From Haematomicrobium sanguinis DSM 21259 (lineage in GTDB: Bacteria > Actinomycetota > Actinomycetes > Actinomycetales > Micrococcaceae), in NCBI RefSeq assembly GCF_000688395.1, contig NZ_JIAG01000010.1, forward strand, positions 1 through 64,000: a stretch of DNA of 64,000 nt. Reading direction: 5' to 3'. The position numbers and the translations under genes are program-made. Positions 9,816 to 27,569 of the stretch are shown here, piece after piece; positions within the stretch are counted from its first letter, which is position 1, and every line of letters begins with the position of its first letter. Under the pieces are notes generated by a model. It was given only the letters and a program-made list of their open reading frames with translations, ran no database searches and had not been told where the DNA came from.

Positions 9816-11813
9816 CTAGACGCCGCTCCGTACTCGATTCGCTTCGCGGAGTTTCGCAAAGACGGCGTGGCTCACCGAATTGGCAGTGGAACTACCTCGG
9901 CCCGGCCGTGGGCTTTCGGCATTGATGGTGTCTCGAAGCGCCTCACGGAATTCTTGCCACAATTGCTCATCCTGGTCGAGAGAGTCGGCGCTGGGGGACG
10001 GCTCGGAAGTTGCTTCGATGCTGCTGGCCCGATCAAGGCGCTGGCCGGCGTGTTCCGTGAAGTACTCATTGCCGAGCGGTGAGCGCCAAGTCAGGGTATT
10101 GTCGGAGTTCTTTGTGCAGGTCCACCCGTAATGGGTTTTCATGTTGTGGTGCTTCCGGCACAAAAGTTGCAAATTGTCCGGGGCGCTAGTGCCGCCATCG
10201 TTCCAATCCTGAATGTGGTCGATATCGGTATTTCTAGCGCTTCGCGAACACCCGGGGAATTGGCAAGTGTGAGAGTGAAGGTGCAAGTAGTCCCGGGTTT
10301 GCCGATCTAAGCGGTAGCTCTTACGTTCCAGATCCAACACGACACCGCTGATCGGGTCCACGAGCATTCGATACAGTGATGGAGCTTGGGCCGCTATTTG
10401 CCTCGCGGTCTCTGCTGGAATGGGACCGTAATCGTGGAGAAGAGCGTGGTCGTCGTTGAGTCCGGCTAACGTCTCGGCAGATACCGTCACAAAAATTTTC
10501 GGTTGCAATCCGGTCGGCACCGGAAGTTCCTGTGCCGCGGTGGAATCGGAGAAGCCAGCATCCTCCCTGAGGACATCGCTGGTGACATCAGAGCCCGGAA
10601 CGCCACCAACGAACCTGCTCGTGTGATCTCCAGTTAGTTCATTGTCGAGCACCGTGACGCGTGCCTTGATCCAAGGCTGTGGAAGAGCCGAGTCGATACG
10701 ATCATGCACCACGCGTCCCGGCTGCGAGAGCAGTGTCGTCGGGTTGAGCACCATGTCGACAAATACGTCTGCACGTATTTGTGCCATCGAGCGGCGCACG
10801 GGCCCAGCGGAGCCAGGATTCGGCGTGCCCGGTAGCCCTGGGGCTCGCGGTTGTTCACGGTGTAATGAGCGGGCGACGTCGTTAAGAGTGTTCATGATTG
10901 CGTGAGCGCTTTCAGCAGGAAGATGCGCAGTGATGGTAGCCATCCCGTCCTGATCTGCGGTCACATAAACATTCCGTCTCTCTACACGGCGCGCTCGACG
11001 CACCTCCAGCGGCTCAGCATGAAGCTCTTCACGAACGTGTTGCGCCTTGCGCCGCACGTGCGCCCGCGATCGGGTGGGTCGAGTTCCTGTGCTTGGCGAC
11101 AAATATTCGGCGAGTTCACTTCCAAATATTTGCAGGCGTTCTTGAGGTAAGTCTTCACTCTGATCAAGCAACTCCTGTGCGTTTCCCCAGCTCATGAGGC
11201 CCTGCCGGTGGACCTTTTCCAGTTGGGGCGACGCTAGGAGCAGCACAGATTGGTGCATGAGTTGGTGTGCGCGCAATTCAGTGCATTCCAGCAGGCACGC
11301 TAGCTCGGTCGAAAGGGTGTAAGTAGCTGTACTAAACGCACGAGCGAGAACTGGATCTCGAACAAATTCGGCGGGCAATCCCTTGAAATTCGCGTGCGCG
11401 CCCTGGGCCTTGCTCTTCAGCTCATCTAATGGGTTGACCGGGCAGACAAACGCGGGCTCGCAATTGGTTGAATCCACGTCAGCGAATTCCTCTGGCTCCC
11501 GCGCGCATGACGAGGAGCTGTCAAGCGAGGCGAGGTTGTTGAGCTCCCGGGCCGCATACTCTTCGACAAAAATGCTGAGCAGTGCGGAAGTGCCCACATG
11601 CTGAGCAGAATCAAATCGTTTGCGCAGTGTATTCCATTGTTTCAAAATGACAGTGGCACGCTTTTCTGTTAAAGCGCTGCCATTGATGTCGATCGGTTCT
11701 TCTGAACTAACCTTTTGATCGAATGTATCGAGAGCCTTTTCCACATCAGCCACCAGTGACTCAAGGGCGAGGATACGCCGCTCGAGGTCTTGGTCAGCAA
11801 GTGGAAAATTCAT
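9816..11813 (-). CDS. DUF222 (13E12-like) protein with C-terminal HNH nuclease domain
   Basis: 665 aa. The long N-terminal part, with RAHQLMHQSVLLLASPQL and VTADQDGMATITAHLPAESAHAIMN, matches the DUF222 family that is multicopy in Actinobacteria. The C-terminus is an HNH finger: CQFPGCSRSARNTDIDHIQ, then NLQLLCRKHHNMKTHYGW. Two Cys plus the DIDH and KHH motifs indicate an intact metal-dependent nuclease site. Biological role is not established for the family; mobile or defence-related functions have been suggested. A TTATCCACA-type box (11874-11882) lies about 60 bp upstream of the start. Confidence 0.8.
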   Translation of the reverse strand: MNFPLADQDLERRILALESLVADVEKALDTFDQKVSSEEPIDINGSALTEKRATVILKQWNTLRKRFDSAQHVGTSALLSIFVEEYAARELNNLASLDSSSSCAREPEEFADVDSTNCEPAFVCPVNPLDELKSKAQGAHANFKGLPAEFVRDPVLARAFSTATYTLSTELACLLECTELRAHQLMHQSVLLLASPQLEKVHRQGLMSWGNAQELLDQSEDLPQERLQIFGSELAEYLSPSTGTRPTRSRAHVRRKAQHVREELHAEPLEVRRARRVERRNVYVTADQDGMATITAHLPAESAHAIMNTLNDVARSLHREQPRAPGLPGTPNPGSAGPVRRSMAQIRADVFVDMVLNPTTLLSQPGRVVHDRIDSALPQPWIKARVTVLDNELTGDHTSRFVGGVPGSDVTSDVLREDAGFSDSTAAQELPVPTGLQPKIFVTVSAETLAGLNDDHALLHDYGPIPAETARQIAAQAPSLYRMLVDPISGVVLDLERKSYRLDRQTRDYLHLHSHTCQFPGCSRSARNTDIDHIQDWNDGGTSAPDNLQLLCRKHHNMKTHYGWTCTKNSDNTLTWRSPLGNEYFTEHAGQRLDRASSIEATSEPSPSADSLDQDEQLWQEFREALRDTINAESPRPGRGSSTANSVSHAVFAKLREANRVRSGV

Positions 11814-11982: not shown

Positions 11983-12633
11983 TCAAGAAGCCGGGCCGAA
12001 CTGGAACACTTTCCATCCGGAATTGACGGGCGTCAATTGGAGGTACCAGACGGATGGCTCAATCCCTTTGCCTGTACCTAGAACGCCCCGGTCGCTGGCA
12101 AGCGCGTAATCTTGGCGAGAAAATTTCAAGTTGCCGCCAATATTTCCCTCTCTGTCAAGAGCCATCAATGCGTCCATATCATGGAGCGAATACACTCCAT
12201 CGACAGGCCATTGATTTTGTTCTGCTACAAAGTTGGTAAAGTGAATTTCAACCCTGCAAAAGTCACAGGCTCCGGAAGCAAGAGCTTCAACCCGGCTCGG
12301 ATCGTTGGTCTCCACCATGTAATTGAGCTCGTCGATGTAATACTTCGCAAAAGCCTCCCATCCTTCTTTGGTTTGTTGCTTGGCGGCCTCGGGCATCATT
12401 GGCACCGGAACGTTCTGGGCGGGCGCCTTCTCCGAAGTGGGCACATATACGGTAGGCGAGGGCGCCGATGCCGAAGTCGACGCAGGCGCGCTTGCTGGTG
12501 GATCCGCACTGGCTGATGACGACTCCAAGCTCCGATTCCCGGCGCTACACCCGCTAAGCAGCGCGAGCCCAGCGGCCACCACTGCGATCATTCGGGCACC
12601 AACTTTCAGCGCGACTATGCCTGGAGCTCGCAT
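11983..12633 (-). CDS. DUF6318-like secreted lipoprotein, copy 1
   Basis: 216 aa. Signal peptide with lipobox ALLSGCSAG, then a Ser/Ala/Pro-rich linker. A conserved core follows: SEKAPAQNVPVPMMPEAAKQQ, TKEGWEAFAKYYIDELNYMV, then ACDFC with a CxxC pair. The shape is that of DUF6318 lipoproteins of Actinobacteria (NTF2-like fold expected; function unknown). The ATG at 12633 overlaps the upstream stop as TAATG, so it is probably coupled to copy 2. Its C-terminal half (GNIGG, SRQ, VWYLQL, GWKVFQFG) resembles copy 3, while its core is identical at DNA level to copy 2 over 75 bp. An in-frame longer start at 12699 would run into copy 2. Confidence 0.75.
   Translation of the reverse strand: MRAPGIVALKVGARMIAVVAAGLALLSGCSAGNRSLESSSASADPPASAPASTSASAPSPTVYVPTSEKAPAQNVPVPMMPEAAKQQTKEGWEAFAKYYIDELNYMVETNDPSRVEALASGACDFCRVEIHFTNFVAEQNQWPVDGVYSLHDMDALMALDREGNIGGNLKFSRQDYALASDRGVLGTGKGIEPSVWYLQLTPVNSGWKVFQFGPAS
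12311..12385. repeat. 75-bp segment identical to 12961-13035
   Basis: Begins TCCACCATGTAATTGAGCTC and matches the partner 650 bp away base for base, including all synonymous positions. Identity stops on both sides. It codes for the AKQQTKEGWEAFAKYYIDELNYMVE region in both lipoproteins (less than the full stretch written here is conserved in copy 3). A recent gene conversion is the simplest reading. Confidence 0.9.
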
Positions 12634-13280
12634 TACTTCACTAGCTCCAACCGATCCACGGCCCAGGCTCCCTGATACCAATACAGAGCCATTGACCAAT
12701 TACTCGATTTGAACCCGGGGCGAACGGGAAGCGCGCCCCGCGCCTCAGTCGGGGTTGAATCGCTGCGAGACATGGTGAGTATGCCGGCAATAGTTCCCGT
12801 TTCGGTCGGCGCCATTTGCGTCATGGCATACTCGAGCGTGAACTTTCCTCCTACCAACCACTGGTTGTACTCGTCGAAGAAGTTCGCGAGCGTTGCCTGC
12901 TCCTGGCAATAATCACAACCCGCGGTCGTAAGTTTTTGGAGCCGTGAAAAGTCATTTGTTTCCACCATGTAATTGAGCTCGTCGATGTAATACTTCGCAA
13001 AAGCCTCCCATCCTTCTTTGGTTTGTTGCTTGGCGACCTCAGGCATCACCGGCACCGGAACATTTTGTGCCGGCGCCTTCTCCGAAGCGGGCACATACAC
13101 CGTTGGCGTGAGCGTAGGGCTCGGCGTGGAGCTTGCGGCAGTCTCCGCCGTATTCCCCGACGCGGAAGATATCGGCGCACTCGTGCCTCCCCCAGTGCAT
13201 GCGGTCAGCAATACCAGGGCAAGGAGGGAAGCCATGGTGCTGAAAAAGCGCCTCACGCCGCGAGAACCACTCATCATCAC
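12633..13280 (-). CDS. DUF6318-like secreted lipoprotein, copy 2
   Basis: 215 aa. N-terminal RRFFSTMASLLALVLLTACTGG gives a membrane signal with lipobox LLTAC. A Thr/Ser/Pro linker and the core shared with its neighbours follow (SEKAPAQNVPVPVMPEVAKQQ, ELNYMVETNDFSR, GCDYC). The C-terminal half is different from both other copies (NQWLVGGKFTLEYAMTQM, ALYWYQGAWAVDRLELVK). It ends in a TAATG overlap with copy 1. Probably anchored outside the cytoplasmic membrane. No function is known; the CxxC pair could form a disulphide or bind a ligand. Confidence 0.75.
   Translation of the reverse strand: MMMSGSRGVRRFFSTMASLLALVLLTACTGGGTSAPISSASGNTAETAASSTPSPTLTPTVYVPASEKAPAQNVPVPVMPEVAKQQTKEGWEAFAKYYIDELNYMVETNDFSRLQKLTTAGCDYCQEQATLANFFDEYNQWLVGGKFTLEYAMTQMAPTETGTIAGILTMSRSDSTPTEARGALPVRPGFKSSNWSMALYWYQGAWAVDRLELVK
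12961..13035. repeat. 75-bp segment identical to 12311-12385
   Basis: Partner of the segment in copy 1, same orientation. The flanks diverge at once: the base before differs (t versus c) and the base after differs (a versus g). Confidence 0.9.
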
Positions 13281-13305
13281 GCTCCCGAAAATCTGTCGTT
13301 GTCAG

Positions 13306-14247
13306 TTATGGTGTTTTAGCGCCGGGGCAGCCCCAACTATCCGGATTCTCCGCACAGGCTTCATCGACGTTTCGAATTTCGGTGCGCCACACGTCGATAG
13401 TCTGTGCGGGTGTCGCCACCTCGCCAGTACCGAGAATCGCTTGGCGCGGTCCGCCGTTCATCGAGTAATCAGCGATGAACTTTGTTGTGAGTCCTACCTG
13501 ATATGTACCTGTTTCCTGATACACATGCGTGTAGGGCGTCTTCTTATCCGCCTCCTCGCCAGGACGCAATGGAGCACCGTTTGAGCCAATGGTGTTTGAC
13601 TCGCCATCACCATAAGTCCACGTGTATTCAATGGGATAAACGTTCACGTCGAACTTTTGGCCGCCAACCGTCATCTGAAAATTCTGAGTCGCATCACTCG
13701 TATAGAAGTTGGTTTCAAACCGAATGAGCGTGTTCGGCGACGGCTCAATATTGATGGGCGACGGTCTTATATCGAATTTCATCACGTCTTCAATCGTGAT
13801 TGTTGGCGCGCCTTCACCTGGGTCAGGTTGCGGAGTATCCGGACCGGTACAGAATGGTGCGCCAACCGAGTACGGATCACTCGGCGGTTCCAGATCTTGC
13901 CTCCAGAGTTGCACGAACATACTTCCCGTTGATTTATCGCACTCTGTGTTATCGAGGCAGCCTCCTGGATCGGCCTTTTCATTGGGACACAGGTAGACGA
14001 GCCACTCCCTATATTTTGGTAGTTCTGGATCCCCGATTCCGCCTTCAGGAGGATCCTCTGGGTCCTGAATGTCCCTGGGAATTACACATAATACTGAAAC
14101 TTCCCCAGTGCCTAATTCTATAAGCGCGTATTTTTCACAGGTAGCGTCCGGTGGCGGAACTTTGACTTCCGGCGATTGTGCGGATTGTGGCGCCAATGAT
14201 CCCACGGTAAGCAAGACTAGGCACATGGTGCGAGTCAAGAGGCTCAT
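13306..14247 (-). CDS. Secreted protein with PKD-like domain
   Basis: 313 aa. A short hydrophobic signal, MSLLTRTMCLVLLTVGSLAP, precedes a Cys-containing region with three likely disulphides (LVYLCPNEKADPGGC, NTECDKS, APFCTGP). The C-terminal half has a PKD-type beta-sandwich signature: YTWTYGDGESNTIG, then THVYQETGTYQVGLTT. It sits between two DUF6318 lipoproteins and its start overlaps the upstream gene as ATGA, so the four genes look like one transcription unit. A cell-surface or matrix-binding role is plausible for PKD proteins, but nothing here identifies a ligand. Confidence 0.72.
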   Translation of the reverse strand: MSLLTRTMCLVLLTVGSLAPQSAQSPEVKVPPPDATCEKYALIELGTGEVSVLCVIPRDIQDPEDPPEGGIGDPELPKYREWLVYLCPNEKADPGGCLDNTECDKSTGSMFVQLWRQDLEPPSDPYSVGAPFCTGPDTPQPDPGEGAPTITIEDVMKFDIRPSPINIEPSPNTLIRFETNFYTSDATQNFQMTVGGQKFDVNVYPIEYTWTYGDGESNTIGSNGAPLRPGEEADKKTPYTHVYQETGTYQVGLTTKFIADYSMNGGPRQAILGTGEVATPAQTIDVWRTEIRNVDEACAENPDSWGCPGAKTP

Positions 14248-14891
14248 TTGGTTTCACCAAACTGAAAAACCCTCCAGCCCGTTTCTGAGGGCTGTAACTG
14301 CAAGTACCACACCGAGGATTCAATTCCCGCGGCCGTACCTAGGACACCGCTTTTGCTCACAATCGAAGATTCTTGACGAGAGACCGCGATATTACCGCCG
14401 ATATTCCCATCCCTATCTGGCGACATAAGGGCATCGATTTTCCCTATGGAGTATTTTCCATTAATATTCCACTGACCGTTGTCGCTGAGGACTGTCGCAT
14501 ACTTGGTCTCGACCCTGCAGAAGTCGCAATCACCTACTGAAAGCTTCTCGACCCGACTAGGATCGTTCGTCTCCACCATGTAATTGAGCTCTTCAATAAA
14601 GTACTTCGCGAACGCTTCCCAGCCCTCTTTGGTTTGCTGTTTAGCGGCCTCGGGCATTACCGGCACCGGAACGTTTTGCGCCGGCGCCTTCTCGGACGCG
14701 GGCACATACGCCGTAGGTGTCGGAGTCGGCGTGGGTGTAGAAGAAGTCTCCTCCGCGCTGCCCGAGACAGACGGAGTTTGCGCGCCGGCATCTCCCCCGT
14801 CGCACCCAGATATAGCCACCAACCCGGCGACCAAAAACATTGACACAACAGCCTTGTGTGCAAACCATCCAACAGTGCGCGCCATTGTCAA
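14244..14891 (-). CDS. DUF6318-like secreted lipoprotein, copy 3
   Basis: 215 aa. Signal peptide with lipobox LVAISGCDGG, a linker rich in Thr-Pro repeats (TPTPTPTPTAYVP), and the shared core ending in the CDFC pair. The core is protein-conserved but carries many synonymous changes relative to copies 1 and 2. The C-terminal half (DRDGNIGGN, SRQES, GVLGTAAGIESSVWYLQL, GWRVFQFG) is closest to copy 1. It is first in the unit, so the promoter is expected within 14892-15001. Function unknown. Confidence 0.75.
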   Translation of the reverse strand: MTMARTVGWFAHKAVVSMFLVAGLVAISGCDGGDAGAQTPSVSGSAEETSSTPTPTPTPTAYVPASEKAPAQNVPVPVMPEAAKQQTKEGWEAFAKYFIEELNYMVETNDPSRVEKLSVGDCDFCRVETKYATVLSDNGQWNINGKYSIGKIDALMSPDRDGNIGGNIAVSRQESSIVSKSGVLGTAAGIESSVWYLQLQPSETGWRVFQFGETK

Positions 14892-20839: not shown

Positions 20840-20868
20840 ACGTGGACGCGGGCGGACTCAAACCGAAC
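20840..20868 (-). repeat. Possible decayed attachment site related to the tRNA-Ala 3' end
   Basis: Plus-strand GTGGACGCG ... GGACTCAAACC ... CCTTGCA resembles GTGGAGGTA ... GGACTCGAACC ... CCTTGCA in the tRNA-Ala gene at 27377-27449, in the same orientation. On the minus strand it lies immediately before a tRNA-style terminator. The match is partial and the T-arm pairing is poor, so this could be chance. Confidence 0.35.
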
Positions 20869-21129
20869 ACCTTGCAGCGATTCGAGCGGCTGAGTTCCGC
20901 GTGGAATCAGGCGAGACTCGGCATCGATGATGCGCCAGACAATGCCATTGACGACGAGCCAGGGGTCGTCGCGAACCCTAGGAGACGAGCTAAAACACCT
21001 CTGACGGAGAGCCAAGTGGACGCTATCCGAACTGCCCGCAAGAACGGTGAGAGCGTGATCTCCATCTGCCGACGATTCGAGGTGCATCGGATGACCGTCT
21101 GGACGCATACGAAGGATCTGATCGCGTAG
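20842..21129 (+). CDS. Small helix-turn-helix protein, resolvase C-terminal-like
   Basis: 95 aa from a GTG. The C-terminal half, TPLTESQVDAIRTARKNGESVISICRRFEVHRMTVWTH, has the spacing and key residues of the DNA-binding domain of serine resolvases/invertases (HTH_7). The catalytic N-terminal resolvase domain is absent, and no clear SD precedes the start. It may be a decayed recombinase or a short regulator carried by the island. It lies at the left island edge beside the possible attachment site. Confidence 0.55.
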   Translation: MDAGGLKPNTLQRFERLSSAWNQARLGIDDAPDNAIDDEPGVVANPRRRAKTPLTESQVDAIRTARKNGESVISICRRFEVHRMTVWTHTKDLIA

Positions 21130-21363
21130 ACCTCTCGAGTTCAACCCAGGAGGTAGTCCTCGGCGCTAAGCGTCCTTCCGAGTGACACTGCCTCAGTTAC
21201 TCAAAGACGTTGACAACTCCGGCCTATGGGACCGGTCTATCCACCTTGGACCTCGTCTCGGCTAGTCGGAGTGCCATCAGGGTGTGACCGTCCGAACGCG
21301 GCCTCGATCTTCGCGGTCGCGTCGATGTCGATTCTGGGTCGGGGTGTCTCGTCATCCCGCAAG
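21130..21363. other. Island segment without a confident gene
   Basis: 234 bp between the HTH gene and the helicase stop. On the minus strand a short open stretch overlapping the helicase 3' end reads TPRPRIDIDATAKIEAAFGR and stops at about 21240. It looks protein-like, but it lacks a convincing start and may be a frame-shifted tail. Confidence 0.4.
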
Positions 21364-23091
21364 TCATGCCAACACCGGCGCACCCGCTGGGGTCACAAGT
21401 GCCGGAGCGCCGTGCGGCCGAATGATCGCCACCTGGTGTCGCGCGCGGGTGATGCCGACGCGCAGCAGACGTCGCGATGCGGCTCGCTGCACCTCGGTGT
21501 CCGTGTCGCGAAAGAAGTTGCCCTGGTACTGCCCCTCGACGAGCAGGACGCCATCGAACTCCTTGCCCTTGGCCCTGTGGATGGTCATGAGCACGCAGCC
21601 GCGTGGGTCGCGCTGGTCGGCCTGGAGTCTGCCTACCTCGAGCGCGCGACGTACGAGGCCGACGGCGCGGCCGTAGCTACCGTGGAGATCCCACGCCGAG
21701 GCAAGTCGGCTTCCGATCTCATCGGTTGCGCGGAAGAGTCGGACGAACTTGGCGTTCGACAAGAGATCAGACAAGTCATTCCCGGCGCCGAGCAGATCAC
21801 GCGCGTGTAGCCAGTCCTGTGCCGGATCGCCCTGAAGCACTAGACCGCTGTCGTACGAGGCGGTGAGGGCCTTGGCGCTCTTCAACCGCTGAATCTCACC
21901 TTTACGTGCTCGGTCAGCGGCGGTCCGATACCGCTCGCTGGTCTGCCGGGCGGTGTTGCTCGCGTTGGCAGCATTCTTCGCATCAAAATAGTCGGCGATG
22001 CGATCGAAGGTCTGGCCAAGTGCAGCCTCCTTGGGGTGGCTCTGCCATTCCAGAATCGAGGCCACTACCAGGGCGGCCGTTGCGGTGAGGTCTGCGTCCC
22101 ACAGCACGTCGTGCTCAACGGGTCTGATTGTCTGGCCGTTGAAGCTGTGTTCTTGCCCCAGGATTGTCGATAGCTTCCCGATGAGCGCGTTCGTTCTTGC
22201 GAGTACGACGACGGACGGATGGGCGATGCCCGCCTTGCGGAGCGAACTGAGCATCCAGATGACGCCGGCGTGGACGGTGCTGTCGAATACGTTGGCCCAG
22301 TAGGCGCGCGTGATCACGTCCTTGGTGTCCGGGAGAGACCGGTTCATTAGCACTGCGTTGGCGTACTGCAGGATACCGGCGTCAGGGCTTCGGTGGTTCT
22401 CGCCACTGAGGTCGAACTCCGCGGGTCCGAGGTGGTCACGCAGATGGTTGATGCGCTCCGGGTCCACACGCGCGTCATAGTCGAAGATCCGCTGATCCGG
22501 GTCGGCCATGAACACGGTCTTCGAGCGTGCGGACAGCGCCTTGACCAGCGCCCATTGTGCGTCGTCGGTGTCTTGGAACTCGTCCAGGATGATCACGGGG
22601 TACTTGGTGGCGAGTAGGGCCGCAATCGATGAGCTGCCAGCGACGAGTTGGGCAGCGGCTGCGGCGAACTGCCCGAACACGTAACGGCCTTCATCGCGTG
22701 CGAGACGTTCGACTTCAGCGCCCCAGTCACCGTCGAAGGCGGCCTTGGCGAGGTTCTCATCGCCGGGATAGACAATGCGCGGAACGCGTCCGGTGAGCAG
22801 GCGACCATGCGCACGTAGGATGTCCATCGCGAACGCGTGGTAGGTGCGCACGACGATCTGCCGACGCTCGTTCGAGCGCAAGATGTCGCGGCAGCGGATC
22901 TCGACCTGCCGGACGGCTGCTCGGGAGAAGCTGAGGAAGAGGATCTCCTGGCCGGGCTGCAGGACGTGGAGCATCGCTTGCGCTTTCAGGAGCGACAACG
23001 TGGTCTTGCCGGAGCCGGGGCCACCGAGCACCAACACGGGGCAGTCGCGATCCAGGGCTCCCTGGGCGGTCTCGGATAGCTGCACCTCCAC
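21364..23091 (-). CDS. UvrD/Rep-like SF1A helicase (GajB-like)
   Basis: 575 aa with all SF1A helicase motifs. I: VLGGPGSGKTTLSLLKA. Ia: LFLSFSRAAVRQ. II: VIILDEFQDTDDAQW. III: VFMADPDQRIFDYDA. IV: ENHRSPDAGILQYAN. V: MTIHRAKGKEFDGVLL. VI: RRLLRVGITRARHQVAI. It is shorter than housekeeping UvrD/PcrA (about 700-750 aa) and similar in size to Gabija GajB. It begins 5 bp after the TOPRIM-ATPase stop, so the two are one unit. In Gabija the helicase partners the OLD-type nuclease to act on phage DNA; that role is inferred here from gene pairing. Confidence 0.85.
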   Translation of the reverse strand: MEVQLSETAQGALDRDCPVLVLGGPGSGKTTLSLLKAQAMLHVLQPGQEILFLSFSRAAVRQVEIRCRDILRSNERRQIVVRTYHAFAMDILRAHGRLLTGRVPRIVYPGDENLAKAAFDGDWGAEVERLARDEGRYVFGQFAAAAAQLVAGSSSIAALLATKYPVIILDEFQDTDDAQWALVKALSARSKTVFMADPDQRIFDYDARVDPERINHLRDHLGPAEFDLSGENHRSPDAGILQYANAVLMNRSLPDTKDVITRAYWANVFDSTVHAGVIWMLSSLRKAGIAHPSVVVLARTNALIGKLSTILGQEHSFNGQTIRPVEHDVLWDADLTATAALVVASILEWQSHPKEAALGQTFDRIADYFDAKNAANASNTARQTSERYRTAADRARKGEIQRLKSAKALTASYDSGLVLQGDPAQDWLHARDLLGAGNDLSDLLSNAKFVRLFRATDEIGSRLASAWDLHGSYGRAVGLVRRALEVGRLQADQRDPRGCVLMTIHRAKGKEFDGVLLVEGQYQGNFFRDTDTEVQRAASRRLLRVGITRARHQVAIIRPHGAPALVTPAGAPVLA

Positions 23092-23096
23092 GGCGC

Positions 23097-24950
23097 CTAC
23101 TCTTCGGGCTCTGCGGAGCCGGTCGCTGACTGAGCGTCGTCCAGTATTAGTTCAGGCTCGTCCTGGAGCTGTTCGTTGATAGTGAGAAGCGCGTCGCGGA
23201 TGAAGGGAGGCAGCTCGTCCTCGGTCTGACACTGCTCGATGAGCGTGCCGGTGTACCCGAAGCCGAACGCATCACCCTTGCGGGCCTTCAATACCTTCGC
23301 CGCCAGCACGGCCAGGTCATCGTCAGCAACCTGCTCGGCCACGTACGGATAGCTCGTCGGATAGTCATCACGCTGCACGACTTCGTCGAGGAAGCTCCGC
23401 ATCACACGCGTCGGAACCTGCTTCACGAGGATCTGCTCAATGCCCGTCTCCGGCGACTCCCAGAACTCGTCGAACGACTTGATGTTCTCCGTCGCGTCCG
23501 CTGCATCAGGGGCGTTCAGCTTGTCACGTATGCCATAGACCCGCTTGCCGAGAGCCTTGAAGATCGGAGCATACCGCGGCACCTCGCGGTCGTTACCCGC
23601 GTTGAAGAGAGTGACGCCAGTGAGATCAACGTGCGAGTAGTCGCCCCGGAACTGCTCGAGCGCCGATGAGACGGCGTGCACGGCAACCATCTCCGTCTGC
23701 CCCTCAAGGACGAGGACGGCGCGGCTCAGGATCGCCTCAGCAAACTGGCGGCGCTGCGTGCGGTACGTCTTCGGCTTCACGCTTGTAGTGTCGATCGGTG
23801 CGCCGGAGAAGGTATCCCCGTCACGAGAGAGGATCACCACGTTCTCTGGGTCGAACTGCTCGATGATATAGGGCGAATGGGAGGTGACGATCGACTGTCC
23901 CATCTGTTGCACTACAAACTTCGTCACGCGCCGCTGGGTGTGGGGAGGAAGCGCGATCTCCGGCTCCTCCATCACGAAGATGACGGATTGGTCTTGCTTC
24001 AGATCCGCGATGATCGTCAGCAACGCGAACACCAGCAGATTGATCGAGCCGGTGCCCTGCTTGGCGAACGGCACCGAATGGTTGCTCGGTTGCGTCGCAA
24101 CGAAAAGGCGGACGACCTCGCGGAGGTGCTCGCGCGTCAGGTCTGAGGCGAAGAACGCCGCGGAGTCCTCACCTGGGGCCAGGTTGACGAACTTGCCGAG
24201 GCGCGTGCGGATATCTTCTCGGATCACCTTGAGCTGTTCGATCTCTCCGATTGCCGGATCAAGATCTTGCAGCGCTCCAAGTGCGTCCTGCCACATCTCT
24301 GCTGCGCCCTCGCCGCCGAGCCGAAGTATCGTGTCGAGCAGCGAACCGCGTTGCAGGCTAAGCGCGCGAGATCCGGTGCGCAGTGCTCGCAGGAAGATGA
24401 AGCCGCAGAGCCGCTTGTGCGCACGGATGAACTGCGCGCGGCCCGATCCGAGTGATGCGCGCTGGTCTTCGTCGAGCTCGTCAAGCTCGGGTAGCGGGTG
24501 GTCGAAGAACGTCTCTCCGATGAAGTCGTCTTCTTCGCGGTCATAGCGTCCTACAAAGATGACAGGGAGCGCCCAGACAGTTCCATCGTCGTCAGCGGAT
24601 TGGACGCTGTCCGGTTCCTCATCGATGAACGAGAGTTCCTCGTCGTCCCAGCGCCGGAGGTGTTGGAAGAACCGGCGCAGCTGCTCGTCCGAAAGGTCGG
24701 TCAGTACGGCACGAACGCGAATCTCGCGTGGGTCGCCCGCGTCGCCAAGATATGTTCCGTGGGAGAAGTCATGCTCGTCGATGACCGGACGACGGTAGAG
24801 GCGCTCCGGACCCAAGACCAGCTCGAGCGCCTCGCACACCGTGGACTTCCCGATGTTATTTCCGCCGACCAGCAGGGTGTGCTGCTGGAAGACGATGCGT
24901 CCCTCTGTGATGCCGCGGAAGTTCTCGATCTCGAGCTGTCTGACCCTCAT
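23097..24950 (-). CDS. OLD-family ATPase with TOPRIM nuclease domain (GajA-like)
   Basis: 617 aa. N-terminal SMC/ABC-type ATPase: VRQLEIENFRGI, Walker A GGNNIGKST (residues 29-37), signature-like GTGSINLLVFALL, Walker B VIFVMEEPEIALP, and SIVTSHSPYIIEQF. The C-terminal TOPRIM domain begins AVLVLEGQTEMVAVH with Glu416 and Glu420 in EGxTE. The usual DxD motif appears as GIRDKLNAPD, so one acidic residue is not obvious. In Gabija, GajA is a nucleotide-sensing DNA nuclease. Its ATG overlaps the AAA+ gene's stop as ATGA, and the helicase follows at 5 bp. Same-family OLD proteins also occur outside Gabija, so identity with Gabija is a proposal. Confidence 0.83.
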   Translation of the reverse strand: MRVRQLEIENFRGITEGRIVFQQHTLLVGGNNIGKSTVCEALELVLGPERLYRRPVIDEHDFSHGTYLGDAGDPREIRVRAVLTDLSDEQLRRFFQHLRRWDDEELSFIDEEPDSVQSADDDGTVWALPVIFVGRYDREEDDFIGETFFDHPLPELDELDEDQRASLGSGRAQFIRAHKRLCGFIFLRALRTGSRALSLQRGSLLDTILRLGGEGAAEMWQDALGALQDLDPAIGEIEQLKVIREDIRTRLGKFVNLAPGEDSAAFFASDLTREHLREVVRLFVATQPSNHSVPFAKQGTGSINLLVFALLTIIADLKQDQSVIFVMEEPEIALPPHTQRRVTKFVVQQMGQSIVTSHSPYIIEQFDPENVVILSRDGDTFSGAPIDTTSVKPKTYRTQRRQFAEAILSRAVLVLEGQTEMVAVHAVSSALEQFRGDYSHVDLTGVTLFNAGNDREVPRYAPIFKALGKRVYGIRDKLNAPDAADATENIKSFDEFWESPETGIEQILVKQVPTRVMRSFLDEVVQRDDYPTSYPYVAEQVADDDLAVLAAKVLKARKGDAFGFGYTGTLIEQCQTEDELPPFIRDALLTINEQLQDEPELILDDAQSATGSAEPEE

Positions 24951-26119
24951 ACCGCAGTCTCCTCGTCATCGGGGGACGTCGGCACGTTGGGATCAGTCGC
25001 TTCGTCCAGAGCCGCTCGGACCAGAAGCAGCGAGATCACCTCGTCGACCAGCTTTCCGAGCTTGCGGACGTTGCCGGTGCCGCTCGCATGAGCGTAGAGC
25101 AAAGACTTGATCTTGTCGCTGTCGAGTGCCGCCTGCTCATCGGTCGAGAGAACTTCAAAGCGACCATCTACCAGCCGATCGATAACCTGCCTAATCTCGT
25201 CGGGAGACAGCGGCTCGAACGGGATCAACGCATCGAAGCGCGAGTACAGAGCATCCCCGAGCGCTTGGCGGACCTCGTCTTCTGAGCCGTAGTTCGATGT
25301 ACAGATGATCAGTGCCGGACCAAGCTGCACCCGATAGTTCTTATCTTCGAAGACGCCTTGGTCAAAGACTTCGTAGAAGGCGCTATGGAAGACGGAGTTG
25401 GCCTTGTCGAATTCGTCGATCAGGATCACACCCGAGGACCGGTCGAGCAGATCCCGCGCGAACGAGCTCTCGAAGTGTGTGCCGCCAAAAACATAGGAGG
25501 CGAATTTGTCACTATGGAACATCGAGAACTGCTTACGAAGCAGCTTGCCACCAAGAAGTCCGTTGATGAACTGGGCAGTCTCGGTCTTGCCCACGCCGGA
25601 CGGACCGTAGAACATCAGGACGACTGGCTTGGTGCGCCGATCCGTAGTCAGGGGGTAGAGGGCAGCCAGCATCCGTTCTCGGACTGCCCGCTGTCCAACG
25701 AGATGCTCCGCGAAGCCGTCGCGGAACTTAACCAAGGTGTCGCGCGTGACGACCGGGTAGGCAAAGGACTCAACCTTCGTCTTGAACACTCGGTCCAGTT
25801 GCGTATGGATGTGTTCTGGCGGGTTGTGTAGGAGCAAGTGCTTTGGGTTGATCTCTCGCACGAGACCAACGAAGTTCGTGATGGCGTGCTCATGGACGCT
25901 CGCGTAGTCACTGGACATCGCGATCAGGCGGTCTGGTCGCGGCGCTGGCGCCTCCTCCTCGGTGCTCTCTTGCCCATCGACAGTGTGCCGGATGCGGCGT
26001 CTGGCTTCGTCGCGTTCGTTGACGGCGTCGAGCAGGTACCGTCGAGATCTCTTGCCGAGTTGCTTCTCGAACCATGAAAGGGGGCCGTAATAGACCTTGA
26101 CCTTCGTGTCACTCCCCAT
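24947..26119 (-). CDS. AAA+ ATPase, ClpB/ClpA D2-type
   Basis: 390 aa. The N-terminal 130 residues are unique. The AAA+ module follows: LVGQRAVRERMLAALYPL, Walker A FYGPSGVGKTETAQFI, FHSDKFASYVFGG, Walker B GVILIDEFDKANSVFHSAFYE, sensor 1 ALIICTSNYG, and a C-terminal small domain. This is the AAA_2/ClpB second-domain type, but with no Clp-N, no D1 and no ClpP loop seen. Start 26119 is chosen for GGGAG 6-10 nt upstream; the longer TTG start at 26134 is weaker. It overlaps the DUF6414-like gene by 11 nt and the TOPRIM-ATPase by 4 nt. It is an extra component relative to two-gene Gabija and may remodel or load the partner complex. Confidence 0.82.
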   Translation of the reverse strand: MGSDTKVKVYYGPLSWFEKQLGKRSRRYLLDAVNERDEARRRIRHTVDGQESTEEEAPAPRPDRLIAMSSDYASVHEHAITNFVGLVREINPKHLLLHNPPEHIHTQLDRVFKTKVESFAYPVVTRDTLVKFRDGFAEHLVGQRAVRERMLAALYPLTTDRRTKPVVLMFYGPSGVGKTETAQFINGLLGGKLLRKQFSMFHSDKFASYVFGGTHFESSFARDLLDRSSGVILIDEFDKANSVFHSAFYEVFDQGVFEDKNYRVQLGPALIICTSNYGSEDEVRQALGDALYSRFDALIPFEPLSPDEIRQVIDRLVDGRFEVLSTDEQAALDSDKIKSLLYAHASGTGNVRKLGKLVDEVISLLLVRAALDEATDPNVPTSPDDEETAV

Positions 26120-26882
26120 ACTCGACTCCCGCAAGGATGACGTCGTACACGTCCAGAAGCGTGTTTGGCTCCGTTGAGACGCCGTCGACCACGTCCAGGC
26201 CTGTCACAGATGCGGGCTCGGCACTGGGAGCCATCTCGGCCTGCATAGTCAGGCTGGATTCCGGGGCCCTGCCGACACGGATGCCGTGAAACACAAGACG
26301 CATCCGACCAAGATCAACCAGTCCATAGTTGTTTCGGAACGCCTGAATGTTGAAGCGCAGGATGCGCTTCGTGCCGTCCGCACTCTGTCCGAGTAGCTCG
26401 AAATACCCCTTCGCCGACGTCAGCGCGCTATCCAATTCGGCAAGATTGACAGGTAGCTCATCTATCTTAAGCATCGCCAAGTACGGCGTGTACATCTTCA
26501 TATACGCCGCGGATTCGCTACGAGCAGTAACCGTCAGGCCTTCAAGCCGCTCGATACCCTTCAGCTCACCAAGCTTGCTGAGGTAGTCGGTCAGGATGGT
26601 ATTCGAGAGCGTCTTGTTGAGGATGCTGCGTCCAACCGCCGACGCACTCGCAGCAGCGCCAGCCTCGGCAGATCCCCCGAAGAAGGGCAGCCAGTTGAAC
26701 TTTGCGGCGGCCTTCGCACGCGCCTCAGCCTCCACCTCAGCTGTCCGTTCCTTGGTCAAGTCCTTCGAAGAAGTCTCTTTGCCCCCCGCCAGGATATCCA
26801 GCAAGTCCGAGGCCGACTCCTCATCGAAGTAGACAATCTTGATCAGAGGCGGATTCGCCTGGTCTTTGCTTGCACCAATCAT
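26109..26882 (-). CDS. DUF6414-like protein
   Basis: 257 aa. It opens PLIKIVYFDEESASDLLDIL, the signature start of DUF6414. A charged helix with an Ala/Lys-rich stretch follows (EVEAEARAKAAAKFNWLPFF), then a mixed alpha/beta region (YMKMYTPYLAMLKIDELPVN, GTKRILRFNIQAFRNNYGLVDL). No catalytic motif is apparent. It could be a sensor or adaptor. The ATG overlaps the stop of the 76-aa gene as TGATG, with GGAGG upstream, and the gene overlaps the AAA+ gene. Family assignment is from memory of the N-terminal motif and is moderate. Confidence 0.65.
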   Translation of the reverse strand: MIGASKDQANPPLIKIVYFDEESASDLLDILAGGKETSSKDLTKERTAEVEAEARAKAAAKFNWLPFFGGSAEAGAAASASAVGRSILNKTLSNTILTDYLSKLGELKGIERLEGLTVTARSESAAYMKMYTPYLAMLKIDELPVNLAELDSALTSAKGYFELLGQSADGTKRILRFNIQAFRNNYGLVDLGRMRLVFHGIRVGRAPESSLTMQAEMAPSAEPASVTGLDVVDGVSTEPNTLLDVYDVILAGVEYGE

Positions 26883-27112
26883 CAGTCTTCACCTCCGGCT
26901 CCGCCGCTCAGCAGCCTGGGCTTGTCGGCCGTGTAGTTGTAGCTGACCGCCCCGTTCGGTACGGCGTCGAAGTGGTGGTCGACAAAGCGGGTACGCGTCG
27001 CCCCGCCCCAGTCCAGGTCGTCGAGGATCATTTCCCCCAGGACTTCGAACCCGACGAGGCTCAACGTGCTTGGGTAACCCCAGGGCCAGATCTGCGGAGA
27101 TACCGCCGCCAT
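26882..27112 (-). CDS. Small protein of unknown function, first gene of the island operon
   Basis: 76 aa, not recognised: IWPWGYPSTLSLVGFEVLGE, then a Trp/acidic segment ILDDLDWGGATRTRFVDHHF and a Gly-rich tail. Its stop overlaps the next start as TGATG, which supports real translation. It may be the surviving C-terminal part of a longer protein truncated when the island inserted beside tRNA-Ala, because the region upstream (27113-27376) looks degraded. Confidence 0.5.
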   Translation of the reverse strand: MAAVSPQIWPWGYPSTLSLVGFEVLGEMILDDLDWGGATRTRFVDHHFDAVPNGAVSYNYTADKPRLLSGGAGGED

Positions 27113-27376
27113 CGTCTGCCTCGCTCTCTGGCGATGGCTCGGCTGCGCGAACTCGCCTGGTGTCAGAGATTCATGTCATCTATCAGTATCTCGAAAAGGT
27201 CGCCGCGAACGGGCGACGACACGACCACGGCAAGCGGCTCGCCAACCAAGCCCTCACCAACGGCATCGACATCAGCGAAGACGAAAGGGCGACGATCCGA
27301 CTCGCTGAGCCCTTCGCCGCCCTCGCACCAACACCGGATTCAACCGATGTCAGGTGTTCTAGTACGTCTTCAATTG
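27113..27376. pseudogene. Degraded coding region between the island operon and tRNA-Ala
   Basis: In the plus-strand frame the sequence reads VSEIHVIYQYLEKVAANGRR, then ISEDERATIRLAEPFAALA, and runs on into the antisense of tRNA-Ala. This is how a tyrosine-integrase 3' end often lies against its tRNA target. No recombinase catalytic residues are visible and no full-length gene is present, so this is at best an integrase tail; it may be unrelated. Confidence 0.3.
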
Positions 27377-27449
27377 TGGAGGTAAGGGGACTCGAACCCC
27401 TGACCCCTTGCATGCCATGCAAGTGCGCTACCAGCTGCGCCATACCCCC
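27377..27449 (-). tRNA. tRNA-Ala (anticodon GGC)
   Basis: 73 nt reading GGGGGTATGGCGCAG at the 5' end, anticodon arm TTGCATGGCATGCAA with GGC, T-arm GGGGTTCGAGTCCCC, and acceptor pairing GGGGGTA with TACCTCC plus discriminator A. CCA is not encoded. Its 3' end faces the island to the left, the normal side for integration. Confidence 0.95.
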
Positions 27450-27569
27450 GCATTCGGCGGATCAATCCGCCGAAAGCAACTTCTCTAGTGTAGTAGACAT
27501 TTTCTGCTCAAACCAAATCGCGCGCCAGGAGGCACACCCCATACGTCACTTCCCCTAAAATTGGCGGGT

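What the first reader, a model, noticed from the sequence alone, without database searches (positions are those of the whole stretch)
21364..27112. Five-gene island operon: small protein, DUF6414-like, AAA+ ATPase, OLD/TOPRIM nuclease and UvrD helicase - an expanded Gabija-like system
Seen: five minus-strand genes joined by TGATG, an 11-nt overlap, ATGA and a 5-bp gap, lying beside tRNA-Ala in otherwise conserved housekeeping surroundings. Known: the pair OLD-type ATPase/TOPRIM nuclease plus UvrD-like helicase is the Gabija defence system (GajA-GajB). Inference: the DUF6414-like protein, the ClpB-D2-type ATPase and the 76-aa protein are extra obligate parts of a larger, perhaps new, antiviral system in which the AAA+ protein loads or controls the nuclease-helicase.
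Basis: partly seen in the sequence, partly recalled or inferred. Interest (0 to 1): 0.88.

Follow-up and report, generated by a model that had tools for sequence, protein, structure and literature searches.

The report
Two phage-defence systems in one operon
Two known bacterial anti-phage systems, Dodola and Gabija, sit here in one mobile four-gene operon, and related bacteria carry a closely similar Dodola gene pair joined to other antiviral genes instead, so Dodola looks like a portable core with exchangeable partners.

Summary
The four large genes are real, but the pair beside Gabija is the known two-gene system Dodola: DolA (DUF6414), DolB (Clp-type AAA+), then GajA, GajB. The fifth gene (76 aa) is best read as a relic: it carries the last 46 residues of a type III restriction subunit whose complete relative in L046 meets dolA at the same junction. 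The operon lies in a mobile island by tRNA-Ala, 98.8% identical over 6.4 kb to one in another family. Linkage to Gabija is not obligate: 6 of 38 DolB loci have GajAB. Nor does it look accidental: 15 of 38 have a downstream gene of 261 aa or more overlapping dolB by exactly 4 nt: GajAB (6), PrrC-like AAA_13 (4), Ymh (2), SEFIR/TIR, ApeA-type, HNH. Restriction-modification or CBASS genes lie upstream in several. Closely related DolAB pairs carry different partners, with sharp breakpoints just inside both ends of dolAB. Best reading: DolAB is a movable AAA+ hub with exchanged partners, GajAB being the one here. Control of GajAB by DolAB is inferred, not shown; two independent co-transcribed systems remain a strong rival.

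The parts
20842..27229 (.). mobile defence island, as the block shared with another family of the same order
   Evidence: 98.84% identity over 6388 bp without gaps to L033; aligned housekeeping stretches beyond tRNA-Ala only 70-74%
21364..23091 (-). gajB: UvrD/Rep-type helicase of Gabija
   Evidence: PADLOC PDLC00104 655 bits; GGPGSGKTT, DEFQDT and C-terminal helicase motifs present
23097..24950 (-). gajA: OLD-family ATPase/TOPRIM nuclease of Gabija
   Evidence: PADLOC PDLC00086 789 bits; ABC-ATPase motifs and the TOPRIM Glu and first Asp present; GajA is the top match among solved structures, 29.7 bits
24947..26119 (-). dolB: Clp D2-type AAA+ protein of Dodola (longer ORF starts at TTG 26134)
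   Evidence: PADLOC PDLC03838 449 bits; Walker A/B, YxFG, Arg-finger and sensor-2 motifs conserved; model of mean pLDDT 86.5 matches ClpA/ClpC/ClpB
24947..25017 (-). dolB 3' end, exchanged together with the downstream partner; encodes a predicted disordered C-tail
   Evidence: homology to L043 and L046, which have another partner, stops at 25017, i.e. 61 nt before their own dolB ends; the same offset in four comparisons; residues 376-390 pLDDT under 50
26109..26882 (-). dolA: DUF6414 protein of Dodola
   Evidence: Pfam PF19952 125 bits; PADLOC PDLC03837 248 bits
26882..27112 (-). 76-aa ORF; about 26888-27025 is the 3' remnant of a type III restriction (Res) gene
   Evidence: 59% identity over 46 aa to residues 880-925 of the 925-aa Res of L046 (57.8 bits; E 2e-14 against a 510-base subject); same 1-nt overlap with dolA there
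27221..27370 (+). remnant of the 3' end of a serine-recombinase-type gene between tRNA-Ala and the operon (in ORF 27070-27558; bounds approximate)
   Evidence: 87.6% identity of 27221-27453 to L033 11831-12063, within or beside a 531-aa ORF with Recombinase and Zn_ribbon_recom domains
27376..27449 (-). tRNA-Ala(ggc), probable integration site
   Evidence: ARAGORN and Rfam; a tRNA-Ala also lies in L033, L043 (both ggc) and L046 (cgc)

Best explanation
This is a composite Dodola-Gabija operon on a tRNA-Ala-associated mobile defence island. DolA and DolB form a movable core to which a partner system is attached by a 4-nt start/stop overlap; here the partner is GajA-GajB. Proposed mechanism: DolA (C-terminal half weakly OB-like) recognises an infection cue or partner; DolB, a Clp-type AAA+ ATPase expected to form a ring, remodels its target using ATP; this gates or reinforces the coupled effector, here the GajAB nuclease-helicase, in other loci a PrrC-like, SEFIR/TIR, ApeA-type, Ymh or HNH protein. 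Shown: gene identities by profile, gene arrangement, the 4-nt overlap, partner exchange around a conserved dolAB, near-identity of the island across families, and that the 76-aa ORF carries a Res remnant. Inferred: co-expression, that DolAB acts on the partner, and the sensing role of DolA.
For: Family matches. A downstream gene of at least 261 aa with exactly 4-nt overlap in 15 of 38 DolB loci: GajAB 6, AAA_13/PDC-S06 4, Ymh 2, SEFIR/TIR 1, HNH 1, ApeA-type 1; one further locus (L056) has a 100-aa ORF with that overlap, not counted. In a DolA+DolB tree of 29 of the 38 loci a clade of 12 (100/100) is coupled in 12 of 12, against 3 of 17 outside (4 of 17 if L056 is counted). The GajAB label needs 4 changes on that tree, at least 3 forced by starred branches; L109 (GajAB) pairs with L043 (AAA_13) and L042 (GajAB) with L046 (AAA_13), at supports 86/80 and 93/86. 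L042 and L043 align at 88-90% upstream and through dolAB up to 61 nt before the dolB end, then differ; L046 and L043 align at 93% from 1890 nt before the dolB end through the effector, with different Res genes upstream. The 6 DolAB-linked GajA rows form one clade (92/95; GajB SH-aLRT 99) among 20 rows; all 6 overlap dolB by 4 nt, and none of 14 unlinked gajA has an upstream gene of 100 aa or more with a 4-nt overlap (L098 not assessable). In 396 genomes of the order, DolA is in 10, an intact GajA of this subfamily (E <= 1e-30) in 4, both in 3 (Fisher p 5e-5).
Against: DolAB is reported to work without such a partner: two-gene Dodola protected broadly in one Streptococcus study and is cited as active in Bacillus (passages), though another Streptococcus study saw only minimal effect (passage). 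22 of 38 loci show no downstream ORF of 80 aa or more with a 4-nt overlap, and L056 only a 100-aa one. Gabija of this subfamily occurs as two genes elsewhere. Separately encoded Dodola and Gabija were additive in S. thermophilus (passage). The partner-specific DolB tail may exist only because the partner's ribosome-binding site lies in it. No expression, binding or phage data exist for this locus. The OB-like match of DolA is weak (best Z 6.4; Foldseek had no match at E <= 0.001). Counts are of loci with shared ancestry, not independent events.
Confidence: 0.5

Rival explanations
1. Two complete, independent systems (Dodola and Gabija) are co-transcribed in a compact defence cassette; the 4-nt overlaps reflect compact mobile operons, and protection is additive.
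For: Both modules occur without the other (for DolAB; for GajAB). Passages read report separately encoded Dodola and Gabija as additive in S. thermophilus. Upstream neighbours are also complete systems: type III and type I R-M, CBASS.
Against: One DolAB lineage is coupled in 12 of 12 rows against 3 of 17 outside. GajAB linkage persists at 62% GajA identity in L035. Coupled DolB have longer C-tails (Mann-Whitney p 4e-4, not corrected for kinship).
Confidence: 0.38
2. An obligate five-protein expanded Gabija system.
For: The gene arrangement, and the fact that the DolAB-linked GajA rows form one clade with no unlinked row inside it.
Against: 32 of 38 DolB loci have no GajAB; 14 of 20 GajA rows show no DolAB; the 76-aa ORF carries a Res remnant.
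Confidence: 0.04
3. Chance neighbours in an integration hot spot, with no shared regulation.
For: tRNA-Ala site, recombinase remnant and island mosaicism.
Against: Exact 4-nt overlap of dolB with a large gene in 15 loci, and none before unlinked gajA.
Confidence: 0.06
4. A chromosomal DNA-repair operon rather than defence.
For: OLD and UvrD relatives include repair proteins (general knowledge).
Against: Rare and patchy: DolA in 10 of 396 genomes of the order; 98.8% identical island in another family; plasmid relatives.
Confidence: 0.02

Closest known systems
Dodola (DolA-DolB)
   Same: dolA-dolB order, both PADLOC models over nearly full length, AAA+ motifs present.
   Different: Described as a two-gene system (passages); here dolB overlaps gajA, and in relatives other effectors, with R-M or CBASS genes upstream of some. 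PMC11514479 gives the Clp-like structural matches to 'DolA' and the unassigned fold to 'DolB', the reverse of PADLOC's labels used here.
Gabija (GajA-GajB)
   Same: Both genes, order and motifs; GajA is the best solved-structure match.
   Different: A lineage distant from the solved GajA (29.7 bits at best); its DolAB-linked rows form one clade. The second Asp of the canonical TOPRIM DxD (recalled) is missing in 18 of 20 rows aligned; L099 has DLD and L104 is broken there.
PrrC/RloC anticodon nucleases linked to restriction-modification
   Same: An effector next to R-M genes: L044 and L045 place AAA_13 proteins after HsdR and DolAB. Silencing of PrrC by a linked type I R-M enzyme: abstract start in a listing (PMC2610378).
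   Different: Here DolAB stands between R-M and effector, and the effector can be Gabija. The AAA_13 proteins of L043 and L044 match PADLOC PDC-S06 far better than PrrC, so the PrrC label is loose.

Membership tests
Dodola | DolA (DUF6414) present | tested here: met
   PF19952 125 bits; PDLC03837 248 bits over residues 13-254
Dodola | DolB, Clp-like AAA+, directly downstream | tested here: met
   PDLC03838 449 bits, 11-nt overlap with dolA; Clp D2-type motifs
Dodola | two-gene, stand-alone unit | tested here: not met
   gajA overlaps dolB by 4 nt; 15 of 38 DolB loci have a large gene joined this way. It is therefore filed as a variant, not as plain Dodola.
Dodola | protects against phage | not testable with these tools
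   no experiment possible
Gabija | GajA: OLD-type ATPase plus TOPRIM | tested here: met
   PDLC00086 789 bits; OLD-like_TOPRIM PF20469 27.8 bits, cut-off 23.2
Gabija | GajB: UvrD-like helicase directly downstream | tested here: met
   PDLC00104 655 bits, 5-bp gap
Gabija | catalytic TOPRIM residues | tested here: inconclusive
   Glu of the EG motif and the following Asp present in the 6 linked rows; canonical DxD (recalled) incomplete, as in 18 of 20 rows
Gabija | GajA4-GajB4 complex and phage defence | not testable with these tools
   octamer known from an abstract start (PMC10822852); not tested here
Type III restriction subunit (76-aa ORF) | ResIII motor and endonuclease domain | tested here: not met
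   only the last 46 residues are recognisable; no family match
PrrC-like anticodon nuclease (partner in L043-L046) | PrrC-specific family match | tested here: inconclusive
   L043 and L044 scanned: PDC-S06 408-411 bits, PrrC 35-39 bits; L045 and L046 by similarity to L043 only

The most novel reading that the evidence does not exclude
DolAB is a general, transferable AAA+ control module: one lineage has become a socket into which unrelated antiviral effectors (Gabija, PrrC-like, SEFIR/TIR, ApeA-type, Ymh, HNH) are plugged by replacing the gene after dolB together with the DolB C-tail, often behind a restriction or CBASS front line, so that one sensor-remodeller licenses many killing enzymes.
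Probability: 0.3. Interest if true: 0.85.

Novelty: new variant of a known kind. Interest (0 to 1): 0.6.

Why it matters
Dodola has no known mechanism: a 2025 paper lists it as unknown (PMC12322248, passage). Natural loci that keep dolAB closely similar and swap its partner are a ready-made genetic test: matched operons that differ in the effector can show whether DolAB senses, activates or merely accompanies. They also warn that a two-gene definition can miss joined partners, and that annotating Gabija and Dodola separately hides one operon.

Tried and rejected
DolB as a census probe: the DolB model rings in every genome because of Clp-like proteins (59 of 59, and all 14 controls), so DolA (0 of 14 controls) was used.

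Direct-repeat att sites: a scan for a second copy of the 26-nt tRNA-Ala 3' end with 6 or fewer mismatches found none in the window, so integration at the tRNA is inferred from position and the recombinase remnant, not from a repeat.

Phages and viral contigs: no DolB match in phage records at E 1e-20, no GajA or DolB relative in viral contigs by exact peptide patterns of the window proteins.

Fold of DolA: no Foldseek match at E <= 0.001 in PDB or viral models. VIA-align, a second look at Foldseek's list, put many proteins that I know as OB-fold proteins (recalled: SSB, RPA, MCM, AspRS, ExoVII) at Z 5-6.4, mixed with unrelated rows; this range may mean only a common arrangement. Mean pLDDT 69.6.

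Promoter scan: 2 promoter-like sites where shuffles give 1.2, neither upstream of the operon; 6 terminator-like sites against 4.9: uninformative.

Rows dropped or limits: of 38 loci, 29 went into the tree. Left out: L040, L076, L077, L081, L083, L085, L086, L087, L088; none is among the 15 coupled. L056 has a 100-aa ORF with a 4-nt overlap that I did not count. L081 has a broken dolB followed by a phospholipase D-like gene, possibly another partner, not counted. L059 (weak DolB only) and L041 (broken DolA without DolB) were not counted. W and L033 are near-copies, L044 and L045 close kin. PADLOC gave no family for the partners of L110, L057, L058 and L050; their labels rest on Pfam, weakly for HNH (24.9 bits, cut-off 21.4) and ApeA (33.8 bits, cut-off 25.5). 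Of 37 DolB plasmid records 9 neighbourhoods were opened; of 16 GajA plasmid records 13. The genome-contig scan used peptide patterns of the window's own DolB, so it favours close kin.

Novelty searches: no paper in the held library contains DUF6414; Dodola with Gabija 9 papers, Dodola with PrrC 8, DolA+DolB+defense 1. Only passages of PMC11514479, PMC12322248 and PMC10952713 were read; the others were seen as listings. I saw no description of partner exchange in these, but most subscription papers and the bioRxiv library are not held, and the original Dodola paper was not read.

Full report
OBSERVATION. The five minus-strand ORFs and their joins are as described: TGATG between the 76-aa ORF and dolA, an 11-nt dolA/dolB overlap (with dolB starting at ATG 26119), a 4-nt dolB/gajA overlap and a 5-bp gajA/gajB gap. 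tRNA-Ala(ggc) lies just upstream on the same strand. The genome is probably of the Micrococcaceae: the contig of L056 (Arthrobacter sp. SPG23) has the same length, 348155, as contig C7 of G212, which the tool lists in the window's own family.

IDENTITY. PADLOC models give DolA (248 bits), DolB (449), GajA (789) and GajB (655); Pfam agrees (DUF6414, AAA_2, AAA_15 plus OLD-like_TOPRIM, UvrD-helicase). So the two genes taken for extra Gabija subunits are Dodola, a known two-gene defence system. Passages of PMC11514479 cite activity against a Bacillus subtilis phage and report minimal impact in their own Streptococcus assays; passages of PMC12322248 report broad protection against streptococcal phages, mechanism 'unknown', and a growth delay on chromosomal integration.

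THE 76-AA ORF. It has no family match. Its residues 30-75 align at 59% identity (57.8 bits) to the last 46 residues of the 925-aa type III restriction subunit upstream of dolA in L046, and the Res gene there also overlaps dolA by 1 nt. The motor and most of the endonuclease domain are absent. It is best read as the tail of a lost Res gene; the near-identical island L033 keeps the same remnant (63% over 46 aa). Whether a 76-aa peptide is made is unknown.

MOBILITY. Window 20842-27229 is 98.84% identical over 6388 bp, without a gap, to L033 in another family of the order, while aligned stretches beyond tRNA-Ala are 70-74% identical. In L033, tRNA-Ala is followed by a recombinase ORF (Recombinase and zinc-ribbon domains) and an integrase-core ORF, then the operon. 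The window keeps only 233 bp of the tRNA-proximal part at 87.6%. L043 and L046 also hold a tRNA-Ala (ggc and cgc) on the upstream side of their islands. No att repeat was found.

CENSUS. DolA occurs in 10 of 396 genomes of the order (one copy broken), 3 of 396 of the phylum sample, 3 of 398 of the phylum of a Clostridiales genome, 5 of 151 and 2 of 189 in two families; each count includes the centre genome. The GajA subfamily (E <= 1e-30) occurs in 5 of 396 genomes of the order, one of them broken; 3 of the 4 intact ones lie with DolAB. Across 38 loci with DolB, 15 have a downstream gene of 261-870 aa overlapping dolB by exactly 4 nt: GajAB in the window, L033, L035, L042, L047 and L109; an 866-870-aa AAA_13 (PADLOC PDC-S06, loosely PrrC-like) protein in L043-L046; a Ymh protein in L050 and L057; TIR/SEFIR in L048; HNH in L058; ApeA-type in L110. 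L056 has a 100-aa ORF with that overlap; the other 22 have none of 80 aa or more. In the 9 plasmid neighbourhoods opened, all of Bacillota, DolAB or DolB stands without such a gene; one has a TIR gene ending 12 nt before dolA, one an Abi-family gene starting 146 nt after dolB, one a broken dolB before a phospholipase D-like gene.

UPSTREAM NEIGHBOURS. Type III Mod-Res genes precede dolA in L042, L043, L046 and L109, as a remnant in the window and L033; HsdM-S-R in L044 and L045; a CBASS cyclase and Cap15-like gene in L050 and, by similarity to it, L048; RhuM (PDC-S05) in L036; a PDC-S28 helicase in L056.

EXCHANGE. L042 and L043 align at 88-90% upstream and through dolAB (except the middle of Mod), ending 61 nt before the dolB end, then carry GajAB and the AAA_13 gene respectively; L109 against L043 gives the same breakpoint. 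L046 and L043 align at 93% from 1890 nt before the dolB end through the effector, but have different Res genes. L046 against L042, and L046 against the window, stop again 61 nt before the dolB end of L046. In a tree of 611 DolA+DolB columns and 29 rows, the GajAB label needs 4 changes (at least 3 forced by starred branches), L109/L043 and L042/L046 pair across partners (supports 86/80 and 93/86), and a clade of 12 (100/100) is coupled in 12 of 12, against 3 of 17 outside (Fisher p 1e-5, not corrected for kinship). Labels are still clustered overall (10 changes against a shuffled mean of 14.2). Several distant rows have long branches and uncertain places.

GABIJA SIDE. The 6 linked GajA form one clade (92/95) among 20 rows and linked GajB likewise (SH-aLRT 99, quick tree); the nearest unlinked rows are L092, L074 and L093. 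Linkage holds at 62% GajA identity (L035). All 6 linked gajA overlap dolB by 4 nt; of 14 unlinked gajA none has an upstream gene of 100 aa or more with a 4-nt overlap (one has a 19-nt overlap with a 137-aa ORF, one a gene ending 59 nt before; L098 has only 99 bases upstream). ATPase and helicase motifs look intact in the window.

DOLB AND DOLA. DolB matches the D2 ring of ClpA/ClpC/ClpB by sequence and fold. Walker A, the Arg finger and the sensor-2 Arg are present in 29 of 29 rows, as is a Y-x-F-G motif at the place expected for a Clp pore loop (motif names and the pore-loop reading are recalled). Its C-tail is predicted disordered, is longer in coupled loci (median 19 against 10 residues; p 4e-4, kinship not corrected) and changes with the partner. 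A plain alternative is that the tail region only carries the partner's ribosome-binding site. DolA gave a moderate model (pLDDT 69.6) with a weak OB-like C-terminal half.

MECHANISM. Proposed: DolA senses or adapts, DolB remodels with ATP, and the joined partner executes; GajAB would be the executor here, behind a restriction system now lost. Steps shown: identities, junctions, exchange, transfer. Steps inferred: co-expression, physical contact, control. The main rival is two independent systems sharing a transcript; passages in PMC12322248 report additivity for separately encoded Dodola and Gabija, which favours the rival for unlinked pairs and leaves linked pairs untested.

VERDICT. The reading as an expanded, obligate Gabija is not supported; a composite Dodola-Gabija operon is. 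New, as far as my searches go, is the pattern that dolAB is a conserved core between exchangeable partners: I saw no description of it in the listings and passages.

Noticed in passing
L048:7714-12078 and L050:7626-12429: A CBASS cyclase and a Cap15-like effector gene lie directly upstream of dolAB, followed by a 4-nt-overlapping SEFIR/TIR or Ymh gene: an apparent CBASS-Dodola composite.
   Followed up: partly
L082:4791-7119: On an Enterococcus faecium plasmid a TIR-domain gene ends 12 nt before dolA, so a partner may also lie upstream.
   Followed up: no
L081:5986-7790: dolB appears broken into two ORFs and is followed by a phospholipase D-like gene that meets the end of the DolB match.
   Followed up: no
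L099:6001-9579: GajA and GajB are encoded as one fused ORF on a Robbsia andropogonis plasmid.
   Followed up: no
L041:7945-8630, L075:6576-7213, L057:9828-11013: Split copies of dolA, gajA and dolB in other genomes, suggesting decay.
   Followed up: no
window 11983-14891: Three related DUF6318 genes around a PKD-domain gene in a stretch of lower G+C (about 54%).
   Followed up: partly
window 9816-11813: DUF222/HNH protein, of a kind often repeated in actinobacterial genomes (recalled).
   Followed up: no
window 20842-21129: A plus-strand 95-aa ORF at the low edge of the island whose C-terminus looks like a resolvase-type helix-turn-helix by eye; no Pfam match.
   Followed up: partly
L042:4302-6263 against L043:3793-5784: The middle of the type III Mod gene does not align in DNA between otherwise about 90% identical loci, as expected for exchange of the target-recognition part.
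   Followed up: no
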